Assembly: GCF_024385575.1 (NCBI RefSeq)
Contig: NZ_JANFMV010000001.1
Coordinates: 3,439,681-3,503,680, forward strand
Source of the DNA: Rhizobium sp. NRK18
GTDB taxonomy: Bacteria; Pseudomonadota; Alphaproteobacteria; Rhizobiales; Rhizobiaceae
Length of the DNA: 64,000 nt
Direction of reading: 5' to 3'
Position numbers and translations under genes: made by a program. This document shows positions 56,424-64,000 of the stretch, piece after piece (the stretch's first letter is position 1; every line of letters starts with the position of its first letter). The notes below the pieces were generated by a model. The model had not been told where the DNA came from and ran no database searches. It saw only the letters and a list, made by a program, of their open reading frames with translations.

Positions 56424-57788
56424 CTACTTTAGCAGCTGGTAGTTACATTCCGCCAGAGGCCGCAGCGGAAGCTTTCTGACGTATTCGAAGCAGGAGTCGC
56501 CGCTGGCGGCACCGGTGTTGATGGTCACCACCGGCGTCGGCTTGGGGTGATGCTTCCAGTGGTGGCGGTGGTGCTTCTTGTGGTGGCGGTGCTCGTGAGG
56601 CGACTTCATCATGTGATGCTTCTTGTGGCCGTGATGGGCCTTCTCATGATGATTCCGCTTGCCTTCGACCTTGTGGAACCGCTTGTGGTGAGGACGTTCC
56701 TTCATCTCCGGCTTCTTGTTCCAGTCCTTGCCGGGGAACATCGGCTTGATGTCGTCCCACTTGCGCGGTCCGGACCACTTGACCGGGCGATTGCCGGGCT
56801 TCTTGAAGTCGTTGCCCTTCTTTCCGTCGCGATGGCCGATCATCGGCTTCGGGCCATCCTTGCGCCCGCCCCAATCGCCGCCGCGATGACGAGGTTCATT
56901 GCTGGTGAACATCGGCTTCGGGCCTGAGGGGCCACGGAAGTCCTTGTCACCACGCTTGTCGTCTTCGCGATGACCGAACATCGGCTGCGGACCAGACTTG
57001 CCGTCGAACCCGCCGCGCCTGCCGTTCGACTTGTTGTCGTCACGGCCACTCATCATCGGCTTCTGACCACGCGGGCCGCCAAAGCCCTTGTTGTCGTCCG
57101 ACTTGTTGTCGTCACGACCGCCGAACATCGGCTGCGGACCGTTCGGAGCGCCGAAGCCCTTGCCGTTGCCCGGTTTGTTGTCGTCCTTGCCACCAAACAT
57201 CGGGGACGGACCGGACTGCGGCTGTTCGCCGTTGTTCTGCTGACCGTTCCGCCCGCCACCGGACGGGGTCTGACCGTTGCTCTGCTGGCCGTTCCGTCCG
57301 CCGCCCGACGGCGACTGGCCGTTGTTCGGCTGACCACCGGACGGCGGCTGGCCGTTATTCTGCTGCTGGCCGCCGTCCTGCTGACCATTCCGACCGCCAC
57401 CCGACGGAGTCTGGCCGTTGTTCGGCTGACCGCCAGACGGCTGCTGCTGACCGCCGCTCTGCTGCTGGCCGCCGTCCTGCTGACCATTCCGACCGCCACC
57501 CGACGGCGTCTGGCCGTTGTTCGACTGACCGCCAGACGGCTGCTGACCGCCGCTCTGCTGCTGGCCGCCGTCCTGCTGACCGTTCCGTCCGCCACCCGAC
57601 TGCTGCTGACCGTTGTTCTGCTGCTGGCCGCTGCGTCCGGCAGCATACGCGGCCGACGAATAGAACGCCGGGATAGTACTGGCGGTGGCAAAGACGAAAG
57701 CAGCCACAAAGGCTGCCACATTTATTTTCCTGCCTGAAGTACATTCTTTACTTGGGGAATTGACAGCCCCAGAGACAATCGTACCCAT
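56424..57788 (-). CDS. Secreted low-complexity repeat protein (Gln/Gly-rich, His-rich C-terminus)
   Basis: The 454-residue protein starts at the ATG at 57786-57788 after AGGAG. A signal peptide (residues ~22-50) ends near AAYAAG. Residues ~52-190 hold a Gln/Gly/Asn tract with four copies of NGQ(T/S)PSGGGRNGQQ. Next come six copies of a GPxPMFGxRDDxK unit. Residues ~370-430 are a His/Lys-rich, metal-binding-like stretch. It ends in a folded tail with two cysteines (GDSCFEYVRKL and AECNYQLLK). I know no named family. The Gln/Asn and His content suggest an assembly-prone, metal-binding envelope or matrix protein. Two CtrA boxes lie upstream. Confidence 0.8.
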   Translation of the reverse strand: MGTIVSGAVNSPSKECTSGRKINVAAFVAAFVFATASTIPAFYSSAAYAAGRSGQQQNNGQQQSGGGRNGQQDGGQQQSGGQQPSGGQSNNGQTPSGGGRNGQQDGGQQQSGGQQQPSGGQPNNGQTPSGGGRNGQQDGGQQQNNGQPPSGGQPNNGQSPSGGGRNGQQSNGQTPSGGGRNGQQNNGEQPQSGPSPMFGGKDDNKPGNGKGFGAPNGPQPMFGGRDDNKSDDNKGFGGPRGQKPMMSGRDDNKSNGRRGGFDGKSGPQPMFGHREDDKRGDKDFRGPSGPKPMFTSNEPRHRGGDWGGRKDGPKPMIGHRDGKKGNDFKKPGNRPVKWSGPRKWDDIKPMFPGKDWNKKPEMKERPHHKRFHKVEGKRNHHEKAHHGHKKHHMMKSPHEHRHHKKHHRHHWKHHPKPTPVVTINTGAASGDSCFEYVRKLPLRPLAECNYQLLK

Positions 57789-57874
57789 GAATTTCACTCC
57801 TACGCGAGACAAAGTCCGGAGTTATTCCGGCAGCGAAGTGTTATCCACAGTTATTTTTAAGCGCAATCTAAAGT

Positions 57875-59505: not shown

Positions 59506-60585
59506 TCAGATGGCTTCGCGGTATTTCTCGGCCAGCGTCAGCTCCTTTTCCTGCAGCGCCTTGTCCTCGTCCCTGATCGCCCGGATCTTCGGCAGCGCAC
59601 GCTCGAAGGCGGCGACGCATGCGGGATCGAACTGCGAGCCGGCACGCGCCAGAATATGAGCGACGGTTCGATCGAAGGGCCAGGCCGACTTGTACGGCCG
59701 TTCGGACGTCAGGGCGTCGAAATTGTCGGCAATACAGACGATTCGACCGGCAAGCGGAATGTCTTCTCCCGCGACACGGTTGGGATAACCCTGCCCGTCC
59801 CAGCGTTCGTGGTGGCTCGCGGCGATTTCGGCGGCCAGTTGCAGCAGCGAGGAATGGGAGCGGCCGAGGATGTCGCTTCCGACCAGGGCGTGGCATTGCA
59901 TCTGCCGATATTCGGCCTCGGTCAGCTTGCCCTGTTTCAACAGAACCGTATCGGGAATGGCGACCTTGCCGATATCGTGCATGGGTGCAGCGAGCCTGAT
60001 GTCGCGGCAAAGCTCGTCCGGCAGGCCGAGCTCCCTGGCGATCGCTTCGGCATACGAGGCGACACGCAGCGTGTGGTGGGCCGTATCCGGGTCCTTGTAT
60101 CCGGCGGCCAGCGTCAGCCGATGGATGATTTCCTCCTCGCGCTCGCGCAGCTCCTTTACGGTCTTCTCGACCTCGGTGCGCAGCCATTCGGCGCGCTTCT
60201 GAAGCTCGCTGCGGGCGCGGGCGAGATTGACGATGTTGTGGACACGGGCGTTAAATTCGAGCGGATTGACCGGCTTCATCAGGAAGTCGATCGCGCCGGC
60301 GTTCAGTGCCTCCATGCGCGTCGCCTGGTCGGTATCGGCGGTCACGAAGACCACCGGCATCTGAGCGTATTTTTCGAACCGGATGATTTCGGTATAGAGT
60401 TCGACGCCGTTATAGGTCGGCATCTGGTAGTCGAGGATCGCCAGATCGAGGTCGATGTCGGGAAGCGCACCGAGGGCTTCGTCCGGCGTCGAGAATGCCA
60501 CGATCTCACACCCTTCGATCTTGCCGGCAAGATGGACGAGAAGCTTGAGGCTGGTCTTGTTGTCGTCGACGATGAGAATGCGCAT
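59506..60585 (-). CDS. Response regulator with HD-GYP c-di-GMP phosphodiesterase domain
   Basis: The 359-residue protein has a receiver domain (1-~120: LIVDDNKTS, phospho-Asp in LAILDYQMP, VTADTD, LMKPVNP) followed by a coiled linker (~125-165) and an HD-GYP domain: HTLRVASYAEAIARELG, the HD pair in AAPMHDIGKVAIPD, and HHERWDGQGYP. All metal-ligand motifs and GYP are present, so it should hydrolyse c-di-GMP when phosphorylated or dephosphorylated. It is the last gene of the operon, 31 bp after the hybrid kinase. Confidence 0.95.
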   Translation of the reverse strand: MRILIVDDNKTSLKLLVHLAGKIEGCEIVAFSTPDEALGALPDIDLDLAILDYQMPTYNGVELYTEIIRFEKYAQMPVVFVTADTDQATRMEALNAGAIDFLMKPVNPLEFNARVHNIVNLARARSELQKRAEWLRTEVEKTVKELREREEEIIHRLTLAAGYKDPDTAHHTLRVASYAEAIARELGLPDELCRDIRLAAPMHDIGKVAIPDTVLLKQGKLTEAEYRQMQCHALVGSDILGRSHSSLLQLAAEIAASHHERWDGQGYPNRVAGEDIPLAGRIVCIADNFDALTSERPYKSAWPFDRTVAHILARAGSQFDPACVAAFERALPKIRAIRDEDKALQEKELTLAEKYREAI

Positions 60586-60616
60586 GGGTTTGTTGCCTCC
60601 CTTGTGATGTCTTTGT

Positions 60617-62878
60617 TCAGGCGGCCTGATCCGGCCGATGGGCCTCGATCTTTTCCGCCAGATATTCGATGTCGGCGATCGCCGGCGTCTTGCCGCGAAG
60701 CTGCTCGGCCATGCCGGCGACGCCGTTGAAGCCCAGATTGGCGGCCATGCCCTTCAAGGTGTGCAGCGCCTTGTCGATGCCGCTCGGATCGCCTGTGGCC
60801 AGTGCCACGTGGAGTTCGTCGAGAAGCGCGGCGGCATCGGTGAAATAGGAGTCCAGAAGCTCTTCGAAGATTTCCTCGCCAAGCGCCTCCGTCAGTTCCT
60901 GGCGGCGGGCGCGATCGAACTCCTCTGACGAGATCGGTTCGCGCAAGGCGGTATCCGACGAGGCCGACTGGTCCAGATCCTGGGCATGATCCGCCGCGGA
61001 TGTCGCCGTCCCTTCGGACGTGACTGGGACCGAGGCATGGGCGGCGAGAACGGCACGCAGGCGATCGAGGGAAATCGGCTTCGACTCGAAGCCCTGCATC
61101 CCGGCCTGGCGACACTGTTGCCTGTCATCGTCCGAGGCATTCGCAGTCATGGCGACGATCGGCGTTTCTGCGTTCAATCCGCTGCCCTTGCGGATCTCGA
61201 TCGTCGCCTGAATGCCATCCATCACGGGCATCTGCATATCCATGAGGATGATATCGAAGCTTGACGAGGTCGCCATGCTGACCGCCTCGGCGCCATTCGC
61301 CGCAATGACGACGTCCTGCCCAAGGCGGTCGAGGAAGCGCATGGCGACCTGCTGGTTGACGCGATTGTCCTCGACGAGCAGGACGCGGTGTCGGGCAAGC
61401 GGACCCTGTGGCCGTTCGGCGCGCTTGCCGCAGCAGGATTCGGCCGCCTCGACGCGAGTTACCGGCAATTCGAACCAGAACGTCGATCCCTCGCCGATCC
61501 GGCTTTCGACACCGAGTTCGCCGCCCATCCGCTCGACGATCTGCTTGCAGATGGTCAGGCCCAGCCCGGTTCCGCCATAGCGACGGCTGATCGAGGCATC
61601 GACCTGAGAGAACGGCTTGAAGAGCTTCTTCTTGCCTTCCTCGTTGATGCCAATGCCGGTATCGGTGATCTCGAACCGCAAGCGCAGATCCTTGTCCTTG
61701 CCGGATTCCCGCACCTTCAAGGTAATTTGCCCGTTCTCAGTGAACTTGGCGGCGTTGCTCATCAGGTTGAGCAGTACCTGGCGCAACCGGGTGGGATCGC
61801 TGGCGACGCACGGCACCTCCAGGGCGTCGGGGATGTCCAGGATCAGCCGATTGTGCCGCTGCGTAGCCCGGCCCGCCACGATCTTGACAACGGTTTCCGA
61901 GAGTTCACGCACGTCGACGGGGCGCTCCTCCACATCCAGGTTGCCGTGCTCGATCTTGGAAAAGTCGAGGATCTCGTTGATGATTTCGAGCAGAGCTTCA
62001 CCGGACGAGCGGATGACGCCGACATTGGCGGCCGCCGGCTTCGGCAGGTCGGACATTTCCAGCAGTTCGGCCATCCCGAGGATCGCGTTCAGCGGCGTGC
62101 GGATCTCATGGCTCATCGTCGCCATGAACTGCGATTTGGCCCGGTTGCCGGCATCGGCCGCCTCATAGGCGGTGCCCAGCTCGTCTGCCATATGCTCGAG
62201 CTTCAGACCGGCGGCGCGAACGGACTTGAGCTGGCGACGCAGCATGACGATCAGCAGGCCGACCGACAGGAACAGCAGCCCGAGCATGATCGCAGAAGTG
62301 CGCTCGAGCCTGAAGACCTCATCGCGGCTCTCCGCCCGCACCTCGCTGAGGCGTGAGTTGACATAAAGCAGCAGCTTTTCGGTAGATTGGGTCAAAGTCG
62401 CAATGGAACCGGATAGCTCAGCGAGTTCCTCGACTGTCGGATATATCTTCTGATTGATCTTGTCGAAGAACGGCTCACTGGAGAATATGATATCTTCAGC
62501 CTGACCGACTCTATCGGCAAAATTCCGATCATCCGTGAAGAACTTCTCGAAGCGGGTCTCTGTGATCAGCTTTATCCGGGAATAGAGGATATCATAGCGC
62601 AGGGACATGTTCTTGTAGTTTTCGGCCGTCTGCAGCTCCGGCGAGTGTAGCATGCCGTCGACGGCAAACCCGAGCGTCCTGGCTTCCCGATCCAGTTGAT
62701 AGATCGACCACTGGGTGTTTTCGCGAATGCCGTCCTGGAGCGACGTATAGCGGGATGAAATATCGGAATAGAGAAACGCCAGGACGGCCAGAAGCATGAC
62801 GGAAAAGATCTGCAGGACCGCAGTGGACTTTCCCGCCCGGCGAATAGCCTCGCTGCTGGTCTTGTCCCGGTGTTTCAC
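60617..62878 (-). CDS. Hybrid sensor histidine kinase with receiver and HPt domains
   Basis: The 753-residue kinase starts at the GTG at 62876-62878 ([11 protein letters not shown]). TM1 is residues ~21-37, a periplasmic helical sensor domain spans ~38-194, and TM2 is ~195-214. The HisKA box has His257 in [18 protein letters not shown]; the HATPase domain has [32 protein letters not shown] and [26 protein letters not shown] receiver follows (~515-630, phospho-Asp in [13 protein letters not shown]), then an HPt domain (~690-745, His in [12 protein letters not shown]). The start overlaps the stop of the periplasmic-protein gene by 4 bp. Confidence 0.96.
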
Positions 62879-63369
62879 TCGACGACCTCGATTTCCTTGA
62901 TCTGCCAGACCGAGCGGCTGAAATAGAGTTCGTTGTAGAGGTCCTTGTTCTCGTCAAAGGGATAGACCAGCATCAGCGGTCCCTTGTCGCGAACGGACAT
63001 GACCTCGCCATCCTGATGATCGGCGAGAATGGTGTCGAGTTTCGCATCCTCGGCCGGAACCTCTGCCGCGTAGTCGTTCAGAGCGCGGACCTTGAGCATG
63101 TGCCCTTTCGCGCCGGCAGCCTTCAGAACCTCGCGCAGCAGCGGGCCCGAGAACTCGACCTTGCCCTTCGTCCAGGGCGTTTCCATGTATGCCTTGCGGC
63201 CGGGTAGTGCTGCCAGCATGTCGCGATCGAAAGCAGCCGTGCCGTCGACATTGGCGTTGGCGATCGAACCCTTGACGACAAGGATCACGTCGCCCTTGGG
63301 GGCATCGAGCGCCCAGGCGGGAGCCGTCAGGCAGGCTGCAGCGAGAATTGCCGTGATGAACTTCTTCAT
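62875..63369 (-). CDS. Periplasmic sulfite-oxidase-fold (PruR-like, pterin-binding type) protein
   Basis: The 164-residue exported protein has a signal peptide (FITAILAAACLTAPAWA, cleavage before LDAPKG) and a compact oxidoreductase molybdopterin-binding (SUOX-fold) domain: FDRDMLAALPGRKAYMETPW, FSGPLLREVLKAAGAKG, VRALNDYAAEVP and DKGPLMLVYPFDENKDLYN...SRSVWQI. It lacks the cysteine that ligates molybdenum in real sulfite oxidases. This is the make-up of PruR, the periplasmic pterin receptor of Agrobacterium that controls c-di-GMP. The pterin role here is inference. Its stop overlaps the hybrid-kinase start by 4 bp. Confidence 0.83.
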   Translation of the reverse strand: MKKFITAILAAACLTAPAWALDAPKGDVILVVKGSIANANVDGTAAFDRDMLAALPGRKAYMETPWTKGKVEFSGPLLREVLKAAGAKGHMLKVRALNDYAAEVPAEDAKLDTILADHQDGEVMSVRDKGPLMLVYPFDENKDLYNELYFSRSVWQIKEIEVVE

Positions 63370-63400
63370 GTTTGACCTCTTGGATTTCGACAGATTGCCG

Positions 63401-63799
63401 TCAGGACGCCGCGCGCACGCCGGGCCCAAGCAAGGGAAGATGGAGATGGTTGAACAGCAGTTCGCGGAATGCGACGGCTTCCACCGGTTTCATGAGGAAA
63501 TCATTGACGCCGGCCTCGATAGCCTTTGCCTTCAGGTCCGGCCCGTGATCGGCCGTCACCATGACCACCGGCGTCTCTCTGTACCGGTCGATCATCCGGA
63601 TCGCCTTGACGAACTGGACGCCCGTCATCGTCGGCAACATCTGGTCGACGATGAGCAGGTCGAACAAGGTCTGATGGCACAGAGCCAGGGCCTTGACCGG
63701 ATCAGCCTCGACGCGGATCTCCTCCGCATCGATCTTCTTTGCGAGATGCTTGATGATCAGCGCATTGGTGGCGTTGTCTTCAACGATCAGAATTGCCAT
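63401..63799 (-). CDS. Single-domain response regulator (CheY-like)
   Basis: The 132-residue receiver starts at the ATG at 63797-63799 (MAILIVEDNATN); an ATG at 63811 adds four residues. It has the acidic pair in VEDNAT, phospho-Asp in LLIVDQMLPTMTG, the Thr in MVTADHG and the lysine in FLMKPVEAV. It has no output domain, so it likely passes phosphate within the relay or binds another protein. It is the first gene of the operon; the SUOX-fold gene begins 31 bp after it. The tail ends in a basic-hydrophobic stretch. Confidence 0.93.
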   Translation of the reverse strand: MAILIVEDNATNALIIKHLAKKIDAEEIRVEADPVKALALCHQTLFDLLIVDQMLPTMTGVQFVKAIRMIDRYRETPVVMVTADHGPDLKAKAIEAGVNDFLMKPVEAVAFRELLFNHLHLPLLGPGVRAAS

Positions 63800-64000
63800 G
63801 TCATTCCCCATGTGGTCCGCGGCGACCGGCGCCGGGACAAGAGCTGCACGAACGTCCGACGCGGCGGGCTGGGGCGAACCGGCCGGCGACTATGCTCGAT
63901 GCATTGATTTTCAGAGAGACAACGCCGGGCTTTCCGGCTCAGTGCGGGGGCTTCATGCCGACCCAAAATGGGCTTCGCTCTGGCTTATACGCTCTTTCTA
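63800..64000. other. Upstream region of the phosphorelay operon; no gene seen
   Basis: These 201 bases to the window edge should contain the promoter of the minus-strand relay operon. Short open stretches at the edge on the minus strand (ending at 63953 and 63939) are too short to judge. I see no clear promoter, operator or RNA. Confidence 0.5.

What the first reader, a model, noticed from the sequence alone, without database searches (positions are those of the whole stretch)
59506..63799. Candidate periplasmic-ligand to c-di-GMP phosphorelay: PruR-like protein, hybrid kinase, HD-GYP regulator
Four genes in one direction: lone receiver, exported SUOX-fold protein without a molybdenum-ligating cysteine, hybrid kinase with a large periplasmic domain, HPt and receiver, and a REC-HD-GYP protein. 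The SUOX-fold and kinase genes overlap by 4 bp. In Agrobacterium the SUOX-fold protein PruR binds pterins and controls the c-di-GMP enzyme DcpA through its periplasmic domain. Here a kinase seems to take that place, giving a pterin (or other ligand) to phosphorelay to HD-GYP route. That route is inference.
Basis: partly seen in the sequence, partly recalled or inferred. Interest (0 to 1): 0.85.

Follow-up and report, generated by a model that had tools for sequence, protein, structure and literature searches.

The report
Pterin-binding protein, kinase, c-di-GMP hydrolase operon
A bacterium related to Rhizobium carries a conserved gene set that probably senses a pterin outside the inner membrane and passes the signal through a phosphate relay to an enzyme predicted to destroy the messenger c-di-GMP; the sensor half is already described by others, while its conserved link to this enzyme appears to be the new part.

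Summary
In detail: four co-directional genes (REC, PruR-like, hybrid kinase with REC and HPt, REC-HD-GYP). The window's pair meets its testable features: E 1e-35 to A. tumefaciens PruR (7KOS), pterin residues present, no cysteine, WX7E motif, a periplasmic domain related to that of DGC/PDE partners of pruR.

What my searches did not find in print is the third gene. REC-HD-GYP accompanies pruR-kinase in 73 of 80 named related loci (a similarity-ranked set; 5 of 7 misses are contig ends). The link survives gene-order change and relocation, and recurs in two more families, once with a different HD-GYP protein. In a reverse search of 101 genomes the six best HD-GYP matches all lie beside pruR; below them linked and unlinked genes mix. 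This PruR-DTB branch therefore most likely lowers c-di-GMP through a phosphorelay, reaching the output of PruR-DcpA by another wiring. Ligand, docking, direction and hydrolysis are inferred. Five relatives keep the operon although their HD-GYP has lost several metal ligands. New variant of a known kind.

The parts
63401..63811 (-). Lone receiver-domain protein (136 aa; alternative start 63799). Optional part of the operon.
   Evidence: Pfam Response_reg 2.8e-21. Aligned phospho-Asp kept in 26 of 26 lone RECs upstream of pruR. 40% identical to the REC of the HD-GYP protein, 27% to the kinase REC.
62875..63369 (-). PruR-like periplasmic pterin-binding protein (ATG start; open frame runs to 63429), with N-terminal signal sequence
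   Evidence: phmmer to 7KOS (A. tumefaciens PruR) 1.1e-35 over residues 40-180 of the 184-aa frame. Residues matching N102, Y104, W160 of PruR present; those three columns kept in 80 of 80 loci of this type, and no Cys in the matched domain in 80 of 80. AlphaFold model pLDDT 90.
62875..62878 (-). 4-bp stop/start overlap (GTGA) of pruR and kinase gene
   Evidence: Sequence; 76 of 80 loci end pruR in GTGA (50), TTGA (14) or ATGA (12).
60617..62878 (-). Hybrid histidine kinase (TM - periplasmic - TM - HisKA - HATPase - REC - HPt), DTB type
   Evidence: Pfam; best NCBIfam match TorS 435 bits, below its cut-off 676.5. HisKA His 78 of 78; REC Asp 77 and HPt His 77 of 78, with 1 gap each.
62294..62767 (-). 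Kinase periplasmic domain (about residues 38-195), DcpA type, predicted helical bundle
   Evidence: hhalign to the periplasmic domains of DGC/PDE partners of pruR: probability 97.9, E 3e-13; nine other segments E 0.15 or more. AlphaFold pLDDT 92; Foldseek has no match under E 0.001, NarQ and Adeh_2942 sensor domains among the weak ones.
62684..62710 (-). WX7E motif (kinase W57 to E65), published signature of DcpA/DTB periplasmic domains
   Evidence: Sequence; W and E kept in 77 of 78 aligned kinases of the type, 1 gap; motif described in PMC13259868 section 8.
59506..60585 (-). REC-HD-GYP response regulator, predicted c-di-GMP phosphodiesterase
   Evidence: Pfam HD_5 4.6e-36 and Response_reg 3.4e-23. 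HD-GYP part matches 4MCW at 1.4e-58. HD-GYP motifs intact.

Best explanation
A PruR-DTB signalling system whose output is an HD-GYP phosphodiesterase. PruR is exported to the periplasm and binds a small, probably reduced, pterin. The pterin-PruR complex docks on the helical periplasmic domain of the membrane hybrid kinase, as PruR does on DcpA. This changes the kinase/phosphatase balance of the cytoplasmic HisKA-HATPase core. Phosphate passes His to Asp (own REC) to His (HPt) to Asp on the REC of REC-HD-GYP, which switches its c-di-GMP hydrolysis. The lone REC, where present, is most likely a second acceptor of HPt phosphate that tunes the relay. Shown here: homologies, conserved residues, close gene spacing, conserved and recurrent linkage. 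Inferred: ligand, docking, direction of phosphate flow, sign, enzyme activity, substrate, and the role of the lone REC.
For: PruR homology and pterin residues. DcpA-type periplasmic domain with WX7E. Relay residues conserved. REC-HD-GYP in 73 of 80 named relatives; on the PruR tree 78 of 85 rows of one branch, with 5 cut by contig ends and 2 without. Order varies (75 downstream, 5 upstream of pruR), always same strand, and pyrC is a neighbour in 26 of 80 only, so linkage is not just frozen synteny. Reverse search with the window's REC-HD-GYP alone in 101 genomes: the 6 best matches all lie beside pruR. The window genome's other REC-HD-GYP lies beside genes that look CheY- and CheA-like by eye. 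Recurrence outside the branch: L214, L215 and L176, L185 with REC-DUF3369-HD-GYP. HD-GYP metal ligands present in the window protein. Candidate pteridine reductase with TGX3RXG and YX3K in the same genome.
Against: No binding, phosphotransfer or c-di-GMP data, and no complex could be folded. Five relatives keep the operon although their HD-GYP domain has lost several metal ligands, and three more have one ligand His changed, so hydrolysis is not the output everywhere. In the single-protein reverse search, unlinked REC-HD-GYP genes (G065, G079, the window genome's second copy; 320-327 bits) score slightly above two linked ones (G086 320.0, G070 315.5), so the linked genes are not a cleanly separate set by score; near the G079 gene stands a divergent hybrid kinase with HPt and no pruR. 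The profile version of that search is circular, its eight rows being the eight linked genes. The kinases of L214 (no REC, no HPt by Pfam), L215 (no HPt by Pfam) and L176, L185 (no HPt by my profiles) do not show the same relay. Mirror-tree partial correlations do not single out PruR/kinase-periplasmic or HPt/REC pairs. 50 of 156 PruR loci have a kinase without HD-GYP within 4.5 kb. WX7E was found in 5 of 15 DGC/PDE partners. The 80-locus survey was ranked by similarity to eight members of the branch.
Confidence: 0.7

Rival explanations
1. PruR-DTB relay with HD-GYP output, but the ligand is not a free pterin: PruR senses another small molecule, redox state or protein partner.
For: The review calls the precise pterin that binds PruR in vivo unclear (section 11 passage).
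Against: Pterin-site residues N, Y, W are kept in 80 of 80 loci of this type; a pteridine-reductase-like gene is in the genome.
Confidence: 0.15
2. The kinase's real target is elsewhere (a transcription regulator or the lone REC), and REC-HD-GYP is a co-transcribed but separately controlled enzyme or a c-di-GMP feedback sensor.
For: Other PruR-kinase loci sit beside OmpR- or LuxR-type regulators. HD-GYP is heavily degenerate in five relatives that keep the operon. In Breoghania (L158) the kinase lacks HPt and no HD-GYP is in the 14-kb locus.
Against: The REC-HD-GYP phospho-Asp is kept in 77 of 78 with 1 gap, linkage survives rearrangement, and a different REC-HD-GYP architecture is coupled in another family.
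Confidence: 0.13
3. Chance or hitch-hiking neighbourhood: REC-HD-GYP and pyrC are simply inherited together with pruR-kinase.
For: pyrC lies in 26 of 80 loci; many sampled loci are close relatives.
Against: 54 of 80 show no pyrC in the fetched stretch, order is inverted in 5, same strand in 80 of 80, and the pairing recurs in other families; only two HD_5 matches in the 4.5 Mb genome.
Confidence: 0.02

Closest known systems
[quoted passage not shown] 2024 PNAS (the latter not held)
   Same: pruR directly upstream of a kinase with DcpA-type periplasmic domain and WX7E; TorS-like hybrid core.
   Different: Described as two-gene operons; the sections I read name no output for the kinases. Here a REC-HD-GYP (and sometimes a lone REC) is a regular further gene and the kinase carries an HPt.
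PruA-PruR-DcpA pathway of Agrobacterium tumefaciens
   Same: PruR homologue, related periplasmic domain, expected output on c-di-GMP hydrolysis.
   Different: DcpA is itself the GGDEF-EAL enzyme; here the enzyme is a separate HD-GYP protein, presumably reached by a phosphorelay.
RpfC-RpfG (hybrid kinase with HPt and REC-HD-GYP; recalled, not looked up)
   Same: Hybrid kinase with REC and HPt beside a REC-HD-GYP regulator.
   Different: RpfC senses a fatty acid itself (recalled; a listing title agrees); here a separate periplasmic pterin-binding protein is the probable receptor.
TorT-TorS and QseG-QseE type systems, in which an envelope protein works with a kinase (TorT-TorS recalled; QseG-QseE seen only as a PDB title)
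   Same: Separate envelope protein plus periplasmic kinase domain.
   Different: Different receptor proteins and outputs (recalled).

Membership tests
PruR (periplasmic pterin-binding, SUOX-like) | Homology to solved PruR over the domain | tested here: met
   7KOS 1.1e-35, 7RKB 3.6e-33, 7KP2 2.3e-21
PruR (periplasmic pterin-binding, SUOX-like) | Pterin-site residues N102, Y104, W160 | tested here: met
   N98, Y100, W155 of the ATG-start protein; 80 of 80 in the type
PruR (periplasmic pterin-binding, SUOX-like) | No molybdenum-ligating cysteine; N-terminal export signal; about 170 aa | tested here: met
   No Cys in mature sequence; hydrophobic N-terminus ending AWA; 164 aa from ATG. Export read by eye, no signal predictor run; a sub-threshold lipoprotein-site match (E 0.051) is not excluded.
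PruR (periplasmic pterin-binding, SUOX-like) | Binds a pterin | not testable with these tools
   needs a binding assay
SUOX-family molybdoenzyme (for example YedY) | Cysteine ligand to Mo | tested here: not met
   no cysteine in the mature protein or, in 80 relatives, in the matched domain
PruR-DTB system | pruR and kinase adjacent, kinase downstream | tested here: met
   4-bp overlap
PruR-DTB system | DcpA-type periplasmic domain with WX7E | tested here: met
PruR-DTB system | TorS/BaeS-like kinase core | tested here: met
   TorS model is the best NCBIfam match, though below its cut-off
PruR-DTB system | Two-gene operon | tested here: not met
   a REC-HD-GYP gene 31 bp downstream, conserved in relatives; hence filed as a variant. 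Transcription itself not tested.
PruR-DcpA system | GGDEF-EAL protein as pruR partner | tested here: not met
   partner is a kinase; the profile of this branch's periplasmic domain finds one match in the genome, the kinase itself
HD-GYP phosphodiesterase | HD and HHExxDGxGYP motifs with metal ligands | tested here: met
   HDIGK, HHERWDGQGYP present; one E-to-D change against 4MCW
HD-GYP phosphodiesterase | Hydrolyses c-di-GMP | not testable with these tools
   second-best solved match is a 3'3'-cGAMP enzyme, so substrate is open

The most novel reading that the evidence does not exclude
Pterin sensing by PruR has been wired to c-di-GMP breakdown several times over: directly (DcpA), through a kinase-HPt relay to REC-HD-GYP (this branch), through kinases in which I found no HPt to REC-HD-GYP (L214, L215), and through a kinase to REC-DUF3369-HD-GYP (L176, L185). 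c-di-GMP breakdown would then be the common purpose of many PruR systems, and in relatives with a dead HD-GYP domain the phosphorylated pseudo-enzyme would act as a c-di-GMP-binding or protein-binding effector.
Probability: 0.35. Interest if true: 0.72.

Novelty: new variant of a known kind. Interest (0 to 1): 0.55.

Why it matters
The 2026 review defines kinase-type PruR systems, but the sections I read give no output for them. Here the probable output is encoded in the same gene cluster, also in named rhizobia such as Mesorhizobium huakuii, so the question what a PruR-DTB kinase controls becomes directly testable. If right, pterin signalling reaches c-di-GMP by at least two different wirings.

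Tried and rejected
A molybdoenzyme reading of the SUOX-fold protein was rejected (no cysteine; the four convincing solved matches are named pterin-binding or Oxidored_molyb-domain proteins). Passive synteny with pyrC was rejected (26 of 80). Mirror-tree was inconclusive: distance correlations 0.38-0.76; partial correlation PruR/kinase-periplasmic 0.25, the largest being kinase-periplasmic/HD-GYP 0.47. Promoter and terminator scans gave no more than shuffles, so the operon rests on spacing and conservation. Solved-structure search with the periplasmic profile gave only weak matches, best E 0.003 to a designed coiled coil; Foldseek gave none under 0.001, with NarQ at probability 1.00 but E about 0.06, TM 0.52. 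TIGR02685 is not specific for pteridine reductases (rings in 13 of 14 controls, over the cut-off in none); of its 36 matches in the genome I read the 8 fetched, and 1 of 8 shows TGX3RXG with YX3K; that one passes NF006597 (an SDR model without a specific name) but not the pteridine reductase model NF006598. The profile reverse search was dropped as a test because its rows are the genes it finds; one search repeats it with the window protein alone and is less clean. Confidence in the best explanation was lowered from 0.72 to 0.70 for that. RdsA of R. etli was looked at as a possible relative: passages only, no HD-GYP or pterin in its text. Whether the PNAS 2024 paper or its supplement mentions HD-GYP partners could not be checked (not held). 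Literature searches were made; some searches listed only the best 15-20 of 59, 434, 130 and 113 papers.
Full report
What is there. Four genes run on the minus strand: lone REC 63401-63811, PruR-like 62875-63369 from its likely ATG, hybrid kinase 60617-62878, REC-HD-GYP 59506-60585. The pruR stop overlaps the kinase start by 4 bp. Pfam gives the expected domains, including HPt at the kinase C-terminus. On the PruR tree its nearest rows with a family name are Rhizobiaceae, with highest identity 75% to a Rhizobium rosettiformans locus.

The PruR-like protein. It matches the solved A. tumefaciens PruR 7KOS at 1.1e-35 and V. cholerae 7KP2 at 2.3e-21 (which entry is which organism from the review's legends). 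The review names N102, Y104 and W160 as residues of the pterin site; the window has all three, and among 80 loci with an HD-GYP neighbour the three columns are kept in 80 of 80, with no cysteine in the matched domain in 80 of 80. AlphaFold gives a mixed alpha/beta domain at mean pLDDT 90, low only in the first 17 or so residues; its fold could not be searched.

The kinase. Its periplasmic part is the DcpA type. Profile comparison with the periplasmic segments of DGC/PDE partners of pruR gives probability 97.9 and E 3e-13; with segments of other pruR-linked kinases 99.6 and 2e-24; nine other segments, some near-duplicates, give E 0.15 or more (two further intended controls turned out to be pruR partners and scored). 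The WX7E motif of the review is at W57-E65. The bare pattern was found in the segment of 79 of 79 kinases beside HD-GYP (in L176 at another place, so probably by chance), 33 of 47 other kinases and 5 of 15 DGC/PDE partners; aligned, W and E are kept in 77 of 78 with one gap. The model of kinase residues 15-235 is all-helical, mean pLDDT 92, with weak likeness to NarQ. Relay residues: HisKA His 78 of 78; kinase REC Asp, HPt His and REC-HD-GYP Asp each 77 of 78 with one gap; lone REC Asp 26 of 26.

Already known. The review PMC13259868 (abstract, sections 5, 7 and 8, the first part of the reference list, and passages) reports PruR linked to DcpA-type periplasmic domains in a set of more than 5500 unique sequences, two-gene operons, and an alternative configuration with a kinase, named PruR-DTB, citing Greenwich 2024 (not held). 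HD-GYP occurs once in that review, in a general sentence. Seven searches (four of them showing only the best 15-20 papers) showed me no paper that ties PruR to HD-GYP; passages of PMC4646962, PMC9756655, PMC9022086 and PMC8846402 did not either. PMC9756655 does report REC-DUF3369-HD-GYP as a recurrent architecture in Rhodobacterales and Rhizobiales, so that protein type itself is known.

The third gene. In 101 genomes, all of different genera, 35 have a PruR match. Of 40 match regions fetched (of 46), 8 hold pruR, kinase with REC and HPt, and REC-HD-GYP, and these are the 8 best PruR matches; in the other 32 none was found. A profile scan of genome contigs kept 80 named loci (of 531 relatives found, ranked by similarity to eight members, so biased to this branch): 73 of 80 hold REC-HD-GYP; of the 7 without, L092, L093, L117, L132 and L166 end inside or just after the kinase, L158 (Breoghania) has a kinase without HPt, and L163 has only a short kinase frame. 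The PruR tree (156 rows) has one branch of 85 rows, SH-aLRT 99: 78 with HD-GYP, 5 contig-edge, 2 without; the label needs 9 changes against a shuffled mean of 52, or 4 if contig-edge and unclassed rows are left out. In a trimmed tree with more classes that branch has support 91, so its exact limits are less sure.

The linkage is not just inheritance of one block. REC-HD-GYP is downstream of the kinase in 75 and upstream of pruR in 5 of 80, same strand in 80 of 80; pyrC is found in the fetched stretch in 26 of 80; pruR ends in GTGA, TTGA or ATGA in 76 of 80. Reverse test with the window's REC-HD-GYP protein alone in the 101 genomes: the six best matches (365-797 bits) all lie beside pruR; then come three that do not (G065, G079 and the window genome's second copy, 320-327 bits), two that do (G086, G070) and others that do not. 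So the linked genes are mostly, not cleanly, the nearest kin; an earlier profile version gave the eight linked genes on top, but those eight were its query. Of the unlinked ones looked at, the window genome's lies beside CheY- and CheA-like genes (by eye), and G079's near a divergent hybrid kinase with HPt.

Recurrence. 3 of 40 fetched class-wide loci and 2 of 20 fetched phylum-wide loci have HD-GYP by pruR-kinase: L171 (joins the branch), L176 and L185 (REC-DUF3369-HD-GYP), L214 and L215. The last two pairs fall apart from the branch on the tree, though one gain with losses cannot be excluded for L214/L215. No HPt was detected in the kinases of these four, and no REC in that of L214, so their relay differs.

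Enzyme. The HD-GYP part matches 4MCW at 1.4e-58 with the metal-site motifs present; the E of its KDPET is D in the window. Among 80 loci, several ligands are lost in L034, L126, L139, L140 (one branch) and L119; one ligand His is changed in L144, L152 and L155; L154 has GYS for GYP; L185 has M at the first His column; the gene is split in L123. The five heavily changed loci and L154 also have the lone REC; L144, L152 and L155 do not. This is unexplained; it suggests a non-catalytic role in some lineages.

Ligand supply. Of 36 SDR-type matches in the genome, 8 were fetched and one shows TGX3RXG (TGAAKRLG) with YX3K, the pteridine reductase motifs of the review. It passes the NF006597 SDR model and not the NF006598 pteridine reductase model. 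It is a candidate only.

Mechanism and limits. The best-supported reading is pterin to PruR to kinase to HPt to REC-HD-GYP to lower c-di-GMP. Ligand, docking, direction, sign and substrate are inferred. Mirror-tree did not single out interacting pairs. Verdict: real, conserved, partly known; the new element is the regular and recurring HD-GYP neighbour.

Noticed in passing
L034:9652-10677, L119:9714-10772, L126:9744-10772, L139:9672-10700, L140:9735-10778 (GYS in L154): REC-HD-GYP genes with several metal ligands lost although the operon is kept; these and L154 also have the lone REC upstream of pruR.
   Followed up: partly
L144, L152, L155: HD-GYP domains with a single ligand His changed (N or Y) and no lone REC.
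   Followed up: no
L211:6285-6998; L068:5252-5938; L065:9493-10545: Other pruR-kinase loci sit beside OmpR-type (divergent) or LuxR-type regulators, so kinase-type PruR systems may have several outputs.
   Followed up: partly
L176:10587-12131 and L185:10667-12229: pruR-hybrid kinase followed by a REC-DUF3369-HD-GYP protein in another alphaproteobacterial family.
   Followed up: yes
L069:6335-7555, L071:7547-8818: pruR beside proteins with a GGDEF motif and no EAL motif by simple pattern, possibly cyclase-only partners.
   Followed up: no
L231:3901-7725 (window genome): The genome's second REC-HD-GYP lies beside CheY-like and CheA-like genes, judged by eye.
   Followed up: partly
L234:3495-7632: A REC-HD-GYP divergent from a hybrid kinase with HPt, in a genome with no PruR match.
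   Followed up: partly
window 56424-57812, minus strand: Long exported-looking frame with Gly/Gln/Asn-rich repeats and a His/Lys-rich C-terminal part.
   Followed up: no
L114:7423-9690: The kinase gene is split into two frames in this metagenome-derived copy; artefact or decay not decided.
   Followed up: no
L136: One copy of the gene set lies on a plasmid of Rhizobium sp. L51/94.
   Followed up: no
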